From Encephalitozoon hellem ATCC 50504 (taxonomy: Eukaryota > Microsporidia > Unikaryonidae): a DNA stretch of 64,000 nt. Under the pieces are notes generated by a model, which saw only the letters and a list, made by a program, of their open reading frames with translations, ran no database searches and was not told the origin of the DNA. Positions 32,852-43,816 of the stretch are shown piece after piece (within the stretch, counting starts at the first letter, position 1; each line of letters begins with the position of its first letter). The position numbers and the translations under genes were made by a program. The stretch spans positions 124,001 through 188,000 of the forward strand of contig NC_018471.1 in the NCBI RefSeq assembly GCF_000277815.2, in the 5' to 3' direction.

Positions 32852-33142
32852 TCAAACCATCACAACCGATGGCTCCTGGTTAGCCATGCCTTCTTCAGTG
32901 AAAACCAGCTCCTCTCTCAGCCTGGATTCTCCGAGTGGAGTTAATAGGAAATATGAGTGTCTCCATACATGAATCTTCTGGACATATCCATGGGAAATCA
33001 TAGTCTTCATAAATACCTTCAACTGCAAATTAGGAATCTCAAGATCCTTGTGGTTCCCAAGGACAGTGTCTTCAAGCAATAGCGCCTTCTTCTCGAGCAG
33101 ACGTCTCTTTATCTTGTACTTGTTTGGTGTTGGTACTAGCAT
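32852..33142 (-). CDS. RPS10: 40S ribosomal protein eS10
   Basis: 96 residues. The eS10 winged-helix domain is clear: MLVPTPNKYKIKRRLLEKKALLLEDT, IPNLQLKVFMKTMISHGYVQK, WRHSYFLLTPLGESRLREEL. The Arg/Gly-rich C-terminal tail of animal eS10 is missing. A 37-nt intron ends 4 nt upstream of ATG 33142. The in-frame ATG at 33160 lies inside that intron, so it is not the start in spliced mRNA. Splicing also brings a GGG tract to about 14 nt before the ATG. Confidence 0.92.
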   Translation of the reverse strand: MLVPTPNKYKIKRRLLEKKALLLEDTVLGNHKDLEIPNLQLKVFMKTMISHGYVQKIHVWRHSYFLLTPLGESRLREELVFTEEGMANQEPSVVMV

Positions 33143-33146
33143 TGCT

Positions 33147-33183
33147 CTACAAATTAGCATTTCTACATAGCTGAGTCACTTAC
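33147..33183 (-). other. putative 37-nt spliceosomal intron in the eS10 5' leader
   Basis: On the minus strand the segment begins GTAAGTGACTC and ends GCTAATTTGTAG, the first preceded by GAAG. The donor matches the microsporidian consensus GTAAGT and the 3' end has a TAAT branch-like site close to AG. It contains an ATGTAG start-stop and, 8 nt later, an ATG in frame with eS10. Not tested by transcripts. Confidence 0.72.
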
Positions 33184-33260
33184 CTTCTCAAAGCCCTTGA
33201 ATAAATTTTTTTTTATTGTTTATTCAGTGAGGCATTTGAACAGTATCTTCTCAGCCCTTT

Positions 33261-33500
33261 ATGGCAAGCGCGAAGCTACTGATGGTGGCATCAACAATGG
33301 CATATGGATATGTATTTTATACGCTTGTTATAAAGGTAAGTTATATTCCAAGTAATTTTTAGCCACTATTTTATGATCCAACTGTCGCTGAAGATATATT
33401 AATCGCGCTATCCTCTATCATCCTATCCAGCATTTTCTTGATACATGCTGTTTTAGGCTTTGATGAGGAAAAGACAAAGCCTATGCAGCAGGGATCATAG
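33261..33500 (+). CDS. spliced 70-residue two-helix membrane protein (DPM2-like?)
   Basis: Exon 1 is 33261-33335 (25 codons) and exon 2 is 33363-33500 (45 codons and a stop), joined in phase 0 across a 27-nt intron. Exon 1 encodes a hydrophobic helix (about residues 4-24). Exon 2 starts PLFYDPTVAED, then has a second helix (about 36-54), and ends with a polar FDEEKTKP tail. CCC lies 3 nt before the ATG and the downstream gene follows after 13 bp, so the exons fill the space well. The layout and the FYTLVIKPLFYDP stretch recall DPM2, the stabilising subunit of dolichol-phosphate-mannose synthase, but similarity is weak. Confidence 0.68.
33336..33362 (+). other. putative 27-nt spliceosomal intron
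   Basis: The segment follows AAG, begins GTAAGTTATATT and ends AGTAATTTTTAG. The donor is consensus. The last three bases TAG are an in-frame stop, so an unspliced transcript encodes only 33 residues. The length, a multiple of three, and the TAATTTKTAG ending shared with the eS10 intron fit the very short Encephalitozoon intron class. Confidence 0.75.
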
Positions 33501-33513
33501 AATTGAACAAAGC

Positions 33514-33852
33514 CTACAACGCATCTCCCTTACTGGGGACATCCATGCAGAGTTCCATCCATTCTGAATACCTCCCAGATGCTGAATGTGCCTCTATGCC
33601 AACAATTTCAGGAACTTCATACGGGTGGCTTTCTTCTATAAGCTTCTTGACCATATTAAATAAACAGGTGAATGTTTTTATAGTCAATTTGTACTCTGTT
33701 TCCCTTTCAACGTTTCCTTTCCACGGATAGATGGATGTCACCTGGGATATCTGGCAGCAAGCAGCAAGCCTCCTAGTTATTAAGTCGCACGAAGCCTTTT
33801 CCGCAGACTCCTGGGATGGATATGTTGTAAAGACAATGAGCAAATGTGGCAT
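33514..33852 (-). CDS. cutA: CutA1-like protein
   Basis: 112 residues, the standard CutA length. Landmarks: LLIVFTTYPSQESAEKASCDLITRRLAACCQI at the N-terminus, SIYPWKGNVERETEYKLTIKT (central Y-x-W-x-G-x3-x3-E motif) and HPYEVPEIVGIEAHSASGRYSEWM at the end. CutA forms a stable trimer; roles in metal tolerance and membrane protein anchoring are reported but the activity is uncertain. No signal peptide. GGG lies about 9 nt before ATG 33852; the frame opens five codons earlier at 33867. Confidence 0.93.
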   Translation of the reverse strand: MPHLLIVFTTYPSQESAEKASCDLITRRLAACCQISQVTSIYPWKGNVERETEYKLTIKTFTCLFNMVKKLIEESHPYEVPEIVGIEAHSASGRYSEWMELCMDVPSKGDAL

Positions 33853-43525: not shown

Positions 43526-43816
43526 ATGGAAAATAAAGTGAAAATTATATCTTCAGACAATAAGGAATTCGCTCTTGACTATGATGTTGCAGCACAAAGC
43601 CAGACCCTAAGGACATTTTTCAATAGGCCTGAAATGTTTTTGGAATCGATTTCTAGGGAGGTCAAGCTTCCGATAAAGGCGCGCTATCTTAAAAGAATTG
43701 TTGAGTTTCTGGTGTTCAAGCACTTTTCTGATCCAGACAAGGAGCCGGAGGAGTTCAAAGTTAGCGACTCTGAAGCCCTAGAGCTATTGGACATTGCTGT
43801 ATACCTCAAGATTTAG
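43526..43816 (+). CDS. ELC1: Elongin C
   Basis: 96 residues, the family's normal size. It reads VKIISSDNKEFALDYDVAAQSQTLRTFF at the start and ALELLDIAVYLKI at the end, the Skp1/BTB-like fold that links BC-box proteins to a cullin in ubiquitin ligases. The central EVKLPIKARYLKRIVEFLVFKHF matches helix 3-4. GGGG lies about 20 nt before the ATG. The preceding gene ends 27 bp upstream. Confidence 0.93.
   Translation: MENKVKIISSDNKEFALDYDVAAQSQTLRTFFNRPEMFLESISREVKLPIKARYLKRIVEFLVFKHFSDPDKEPEEFKVSDSEALELLDIAVYLKI

What the first reader, a model, noticed from the sequence alone, without database searches (positions are those of the whole stretch)
33261..33500. A hidden two-exon microprotein gene with a 27-nt intron
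Reading through the GTAAGT...TAATTTTTAG segment joins two open frames into a 70-residue protein with two membrane helices. Neither exon stands out alone. The start has CCC 3 nt upstream, both flanks are filled to within 13 bp by other genes, and exon 2 stays open for 45 codons in the right phase. The last three intron bases are an in-frame TAG, so splicing is needed for the second helix. It may be DPM2, the small partner of dolichol-phosphate-mannose synthase. Established: Encephalitozoon has very short introns. Inference: this gene and its identity.
Basis: partly seen in the sequence, partly recalled or inferred. Interest (0 to 1): 0.75.

Follow-up and report, generated by a model that had tools for sequence, protein, structure and literature searches.

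The report
Small spliced microsporidian membrane-protein gene
This is a real-looking but ordinary gene of the parasite Encephalitozoon hellem, interrupted by a tiny 27-base intron and encoding a 70-residue two-helix membrane protein; it is already in public databases as a hypothetical protein, and its proposed identity as DPM2 is not supported.

Summary
A 25-codon exon (33261-33335), a 27-nt intron (33336-33362, GTAAGT...TAATTTTTAG) and a 45-codon exon (33363-33500) join in phase into a 70-aa protein with two hydrophobic helices. The gene is not hidden: the joined protein is 100% identical to E. hellem KMI_04g07580, and EHEL_041300 is the same gene on the window's own chromosome, both "hypothetical". 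The two public models disagree: EHEL_041300 needs an intron at 33352-33375 that ends in TG, not AG. DPM2 is not supported: no Pfam match; on a DPM2 profile 1381 of 2000 topology-preserving shuffles score as well, while yeast DPM2 (Yil102c-A) beats all 2000 of its shuffles. Best reading: an ordinary intron-bearing microsporidian gene for a membrane hairpin microprotein of unknown partner, whose full-length product needs splicing. No RNA evidence and no related sequence from outside E. hellem could be examined.

The parts
33255..33257 (+). CCC motif 3 nt before the start codon (Encephalitozoon start-proximal signal)
   Evidence: sequence; CCC-like motif immediately upstream of most E. cuniculi coding starts, PMC2803860 passages
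33261..33335 (+). exon 1, codons 1-25 (first helix)
   Evidence: identical to residues 1-25 of KMI_04g07580 (P0001) and of EHEL_041300 (P0002)
33336..33362 (+). 27-nt intron GTAAGT...TAATTTTTAG, phase 0, with in-frame TAG as its last three bases
   Evidence: acceptor-profile score 14.3 bits against 11.0-17.9 for 16 other introns of this genome
33353..33356 (+). branch-point-like TAAT, starting 10 nt from the intron end
   Evidence: TAAY starts 8-12 nt from the end in the 16 comparison introns; branch-point role inferred
33363..33500 (+). exon 2, 45 codons plus stop (second helix and polar tail)
   Evidence: identical to residues 26-70 of KMI_04g07580
33352..33375 (+). intron implied by the public model EHEL_041300 (GT...TG); probably a mis-annotation
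   Evidence: the only single-intron join among those tried that gives P0002; acceptor-profile score 2.7

Best explanation
It is an ordinary protein-coding gene of E. hellem with one short spliceosomal intron. Shown: the DNA, the phase, the intron's match to this genome's intron consensus, and an identical public protein. Inferred: the transcript starts a few nucleotides before the ATG, near the CCC motif; the spliceosome removes 27 nt; the ribosome then reads a 70-aa integral membrane hairpin (helices about 2-29 and 31-61, short polar tail). Without splicing the ribosome meets TAG after 33 codons and makes only one helix. As splicing in E. cuniculi is reported to appear confined to the intracellular stage, the full protein would be an intracellular-stage product. 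The likeliest role is a small subunit or assembly partner of a larger endomembrane complex; which one is unknown. (The confidence is for the gene model and its splicing; rivals 1 and 2 are competing identities within that same model.)
For: Joined frame equals KMI_04g07580, 70 of 70 residues. Intron type: of the 30 loci fetched out of 41 pattern hits in this genome, 19 have the GTAAGT...TAAY-T-run-AG form; in 17 of these 19 (this one included) removing the intron gives a frame of 70 aa or more that is longer than the unspliced one, against 1 of the 11 without that form. Of 41 GTAAGT..AG pairs of 22-50 nt in the window this one scores highest (14.3), then the RPS10 one (13.3), then 6.7. Gene-like codon use of the joined frame. 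The 353-nt space between the flanking frames is the fourth largest of 54 in the window; the largest holds a Skp1-like small gene. Single-sequence AlphaFold2 gives a two-helix hairpin, mean pLDDT 83.8. Stage-limited splicing: PMC3629993 passages.
Against: No RNA data examined. No ortholog outside E. hellem found: one search returned 2 proteins, both E. hellem, but it sees only proteins of similar length sharing exact 5-residue words, so absence is not shown. Exon 2 codon score alone is weak (0.093; two reverse frames score higher). The base before TAAT is G, where 12 of 16 comparison introns have C or T (2 have G, 2 have A). The profile was built from sites found with a GTAAGT...TRAY...TAG pattern that this site also fits, so its high score is partly by construction. 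PMC2803860 reports a predicted 27-nt intron in an E. cuniculi ribosomal-protein gene that was not spliced (passage); that one did not shift the frame. The complex-subunit role rests only on size and topology.
Confidence: 0.85

Rival explanations
1. The protein is DPM2, the regulatory subunit of dolichol-phosphate-mannose synthase, diverged beyond recognition, and stabilises the catalytic subunit in the ER membrane.
For: Right size and two helices. The genome has a DPM1-like enzyme (230 aa; best solved-structure match is dolichol monophosphate mannose synthase, E 7e-33) that ends soon after the catalytic domain with one short hydrophobic end. Enzymes without the yeast-type C-terminal membrane segment work with DPM2 and DPM3 in human and Trichoderma (PMC7728079 passages), so a DPM2 is expected somewhere. 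Loose local likeness by eye: FYTLVI-KPLFYD against YYTAWVILLPFID.
Against: No Pfam match listed at E up to 10 (HMMER's filters drop most matches above about 0.1) while yeast Yil102c-A matches PF07297 at 4.6e-8. Profile of 56 DPM2 sequences: 0.5 bits, 1381 of 2000 segment shuffles equal or better; control yeast DPM2 against a 54-sequence profile without it: 24.0 bits, 0 of 2000. An earlier 27-sequence profile: 1.6 bits, 1223 of 2000. hhalign probability 0.2% against 94% for the control (the control's output lists 51 of 55 sequences for its query, presumably merged in after the hit, so I lean on the HMMER test). Predicted helices are joined by a tight turn at residue 30, whereas yeast DPM2 is predicted with a linker at residues 29-41.
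Confidence: 0.08
2. The protein is a diverged member of another ancient two-helix endomembrane microprotein family (for example V-ATPase subunit e, Vma21, PIG-Y type; names recalled).
For: Several of the other intron-bearing genes found here look like conserved eukaryotic genes by eye (ribosomal proteins, an adenylate-kinase-like and a Sec61-like protein, names recalled, not searched), so the host gene may be old.
Against: 0 families in Pfam (24736 models, E up to 10) and in NCBIfam, a prokaryote-oriented library; no PDB match by sequence or fold.
Confidence: 0.2
3. The public gene model EHEL_041300 is right: the intron is 33352-33375 and the protein has 71 aa.
For: It is the public annotation of what I take to be this strain.
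Against: Its intron ends in TG; PMC3629993 states that all E. cuniculi introns have GT-AG boundaries (section read). Acceptor score 2.7 against 14.3, on a profile whose members were chosen to end in TAG. It keeps GTAAGT inside the exon, and the other E. hellem annotation differs.
Confidence: 0.03
4. No splicing occurs; the stretch encodes at most a 33-aa single-helix peptide or nothing.
For: A 33-aa frame 33261-33362 exists; no RNA evidence is in hand; given the intron motif, chance alone gives a joined frame of 70 aa or more in 57 of 3000 shuffles.
Against: The full intron motif was in 0 of 100 window shuffles; in 17 of 19 like-shaped sites of this genome the splice extends a frame to 70 aa or more (this site included); coding-like composition of the joined frame.
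Confidence: 0.06

Closest known systems
KMI_04g07580 [Encephalitozoon hellem], hypothetical protein
   Different: nothing in the protein; its DNA and annotated junction were not available
EHEL_041300 [Encephalitozoon hellem ATCC 50504], hypothetical protein
   Different: implied intron 33352-33375 with a GT...TG boundary, replacing PLFYD by VSYIPN
Short spliceosomal introns of Encephalitozoon (22-76 nt in E. cuniculi, 37 junctions analysed, PMC3629993)
   Same: GT-AG ends, strict donor, TAAY close to the acceptor, 27 nt
   Different: TAAY-to-end spacing of 10 instead of the commonest 9; G before TAAT, shared by 2 of 16
DPM2 family (PF07297), including yeast Yil102c-A
   Same: size and two predicted helices
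   Different: no profile similarity and no inter-helix linker

Membership tests
Encephalitozoon short spliceosomal intron | GT-AG boundaries and 22-76 nt length | tested here: met
   GT...AG, 27 nt; range and boundaries from PMC3629993
Encephalitozoon short spliceosomal intron | strict donor and branch-point motif near the acceptor | tested here: met
   GTAAGT; acceptor/branch score 14.3 within the 11.0-17.9 range of 16 others, themselves chosen by pattern
Encephalitozoon short spliceosomal intron | spliced reads | not testable with these tools
   no RNA data
Encephalitozoon short spliceosomal intron | position and ends conserved in related species | not testable with these tools
   one search lists only E. 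hellem proteins; one search says the genome has no relatives in that collection
DPM2 (PF07297) | match to the family profile | tested here: not met
   positive control passes. (six-frame) also negative, but its controls were silent
DPM2 (PF07297) | two membrane helices, about 70-85 aa | tested here: met
DPM2 (PF07297) | linker between the helices as in yeast DPM2 | tested here: inconclusive
   predicted H2-29/H31-61 here against H2-28/H30-35/H42-73 in yeast P0091; single-sequence models only
DPM2 (PF07297) | binds DPM1 and supports its activity | not testable with these tools
   needs a bench test; a DPM1-like gene is present
DPM3 (PF08285) | two helices followed by a cytosolic domain that holds DPM1 (domain layout recalled) | tested here: not met
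   only 9-12 residues follow helix 2; no Pfam match

The most novel reading that the evidence does not exclude
A membrane microprotein so far seen only in E. hellem (or the genus), whose full-length two-helix form is made only in intracellular stages because its tiny intron carries the stop codon: splicing acting as a stage switch for a lineage-specific membrane protein.
Probability: 0.12. Interest if true: 0.4.

Novelty: already known. Interest (0 to 1): 0.2.

Why it matters
It shows that a reader of raw sequence recovered a spliced gene of a very compact eukaryote with the same product as one public annotation, and with a better junction than the other, EHEL_041300, which implies a non-canonical intron that should be checked and probably corrected. 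If the protein were shown to be DPM2 it would fill an expected gap beside a DPM1 that seems to lack the yeast-type membrane anchor, but the present evidence points away from that.

Tried and rejected
DPM2: tested with Pfam, the six-frame genome search (whose 14 controls did not ring, so it shows no absence), two home-made profiles with shuffles, the second with a yeast control, and hhalign: rejected as unsupported. The profiles rest mainly on mammal and Saccharomyces plus plant sequences, some of them unnamed: the best 120 listed of 230 and of 247 matches; after length filter and thinning 27 of 77 and 56 of 178 sequences were used. No filamentous-fungal or microsporidian DPM2 was in hand. DPM3: six-frame search negative, controls silent. 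PIG-P: two weak sub-cutoff matches on contig C3, not followed. Fold search against the PDB: no match, uninformative for a short hairpin. Two intron patterns one base too long missed the site. The loose intron pattern is no better than its reversed control and was not used as evidence. In one search minus-strand loci were read on the wrong strand; one search repeats this correctly. 11 of the 41 hits were not fetched and not examined; the 16-intron profile leaves out this intron, the RPS10 one and L031, and its members were chosen by a GTAAGT...TRAY...TAG pattern and by the TAAY-T-run-AG form, so it says nothing about the donor and is biased towards TAG ends. Papers: PMC3629993 (section 10 and passages), PMC2803860, PMC10158259, PMC10815200 and PMC7728079 (passages), PMC4589312 (abstract and Results section; EHEL_041300 is not in its Table 1 of new small genes; its supplementary tables were not seen). 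Full-text search for both locus tags: 0 papers. PMC6349667 and PMC3809491, on microsporidian introns, are not held.

Full report
Where it is. The window is G000:C4:124001-188000 of a 2.25-Mb, 12-contig genome. Contig C4 is 196,397 bases long, the same as the contig that carries EHEL_041300 of Encephalitozoon hellem ATCC 50504, and EHEL_041300 can be read exactly from the window. I therefore take the window to be chromosome IV of that strain; this is an inference from length and identity.

What is in the sequence. 33261-33335 encodes 25 codons, 33336-33362 is GTAAGTTATATTCCAAGTAATTTTTAG, and 33363-33500 encodes 45 codons and a stop; joined they give 70 aa. Read through without splicing, the frame ends at the intron's own TAG after 33 aa. 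A CCC sits three bases before the ATG, the signal that PMC2803860 describes just upstream of most E. cuniculi coding starts (passages seen). The neighbours are RPS10 (32852-33160, minus; PF03501 4.7e-14), CutA1 (33514-33852, minus; PF03091 3e-30), a Rad21/Rec8-like protein, ribosomal protein L13 and RPB1. The space is tight only downstream (13 bp); upstream 100 bp separate the ATG from the RPS10 frame.

It is not hidden. A search of about 5.8 billion proteins returned 2 proteins, both from E. hellem: KMI_04g07580 (70 aa, 100% identical) and EHEL_041300 (71 aa, 92%), both named hypothetical. That search sees only proteins of similar length sharing exact 5-residue words, so it does not show that other species lack the gene. 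The two proteins differ only around the junction. Testing single-intron joins with donors from 33301 to 33420 and acceptors up to about 33460, EHEL_041300 is reproduced by one join only, removing 33352-33375, GTAATTTTTAGCCACTATTTTATG, which ends in TG. PMC3629993 states that all E. cuniculi introns are GT-AG and 22-76 nt long (section 10 read).

Is the intron real? Of 41 hits of the loose pattern in the genome the 30 that were fetched were examined. Nineteen of the 30 end in TAAY, a T-run and AG; removing the intron extends the frame to 70 aa or more, beyond the unspliced length, in 17 of these 19, this gene included; one gives 43 against 25 aa (L031) and one (RPS10) lies before the start codon. 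Of the 11 others, 1 (L030, 143 against 119 aa) meets the same criterion, and 7 are copies of one repeat. With a profile of the acceptor side from 16 introns (this one, RPS10 and L031 left out), this intron scores 14.3 bits; the 16 score 11.0-17.9; the EHEL_041300 intron scores 2.7. Among 41 GTAAGT..AG pairs of 22-50 nt in the window the top two are this intron and the RPS10 one (13.3); the next is 6.7 and overlaps the RPS10 site. The profile is biased towards the pattern that found its members, which this site also fits. The strict motif is in 0 of 100 shuffles of the window; the loose motif is not above chance.

Is the frame coding? The joined frame scores 0.183 bits per codon against 0.286 +/- 0.105 for windows of long frames (14% of them score as low), about 0.0 for shifted and -0.06 for reverse frames. 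Exon 1 is clear (0.345); exon 2 alone is not (0.093, with two reverse frames at 0.105 and 0.198). With the intron fixed and the flanks shuffled, 57 of 3000 trials gave a joined frame of 70 aa or more. The 353-nt gap that the gene fills is the fourth largest of 54 between frames of 100 aa or more; the largest gap holds a small Skp1-like gene, the second and third hold only frames of up to 74 aa that I did not search. Together these make a gene very likely, but none replaces RNA or cross-species evidence, which I could not obtain.

What the protein is. Hydropathy shows two membrane segments, and single-sequence AlphaFold2 gives helices 2-29 and 31-61 with mean pLDDT 83.8 and pTM 0.47. No Pfam, NCBIfam, PDB-sequence or PDB-fold match. 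For DPM2: retrieved DPM2 sequences thinned to 56 give a profile on which the protein scores 0.5 bits; 1381 of 2000 shuffles that keep its helix/loop architecture score as well. The same design recovers yeast DPM2 from a 54-sequence profile without it at 24.0 bits with 0 of 2000 shuffles reaching it. Yeast DPM2 is predicted with a linker between its helices (H2-28, H30-35, H42-73), which the present protein lacks. A DPM1-like enzyme does exist in the genome on the same contig (L032 1492-2184, 230 aa) and ends with one short hydrophobic stretch (best window 1.69) and no clear further membrane anchor, so a DPM2 or DPM3 is expected somewhere; the six-frame searches for these families cannot show absence because their controls were silent. 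DPM2 remains possible at about 8%.

How it most likely works. Inferred: a short-leader transcript, removal of 27 nt, and translation of a membrane hairpin that serves as a small subunit or assembly partner in an endomembrane complex. PMC3629993 says, citing earlier work, that splicing in E. cuniculi appears to take place only in the intracellular stage, leaving unspliced transcripts in spores (passage); if E. hellem is alike, spores would carry only the form with the early stop. That step is untested.

Verdict. A correct reading of the DNA, an ordinary intron-bearing microsporidian gene that is already annotated, a probable error in one public annotation, and an unsupported identity.

Noticed in passing
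window 33147-33183 (-): RPS10 carries a second strong intron (GTAAGTGACTCAGCTATGTAGAAATGCTAATTTGTAG) that ends just before its probable start codon at 33142-33140; no ATG lies in an open frame upstream, so it would be a 5'-UTR intron. E. cuniculi intron-bearing genes are reported to have only short 5' UTRs. AAATTT-like and GGG motifs lie upstream.
   Followed up: partly
window 33352-33375 (+): The public model EHEL_041300 implies this stretch as an intron although it ends in TG; it conflicts with KMI_04g07580, another E. hellem annotation.
   Followed up: yes
L032:1492-2184 (+): A 230-aa DPM1-like glycosyltransferase on the same contig, less than 1 kb before the window, without a clear separate C-terminal membrane anchor.
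   Followed up: partly
window 43526-43816 (+): A 96-aa Skp1-like frame (PF03931, 1.5e-5) fills part of the largest gap between long frames in the window.
   Followed up: partly
L007, L009, L010, L012, L015, L017, L020, position 1501-1530: The same sequence GTAAGTGTTGTCTTTTTTTGTGATGAGTAG occurs in at least seven places within about 2.6 kb of contig ends: a subtelomeric repeat that mimics an intron pattern.
   Followed up: no
L023, L026 and L031, position 1501 onward: Further consensus introns whose spliced frames (137, 83 and 43 aa) were not identified and may merit annotation checks.
   Followed up: no
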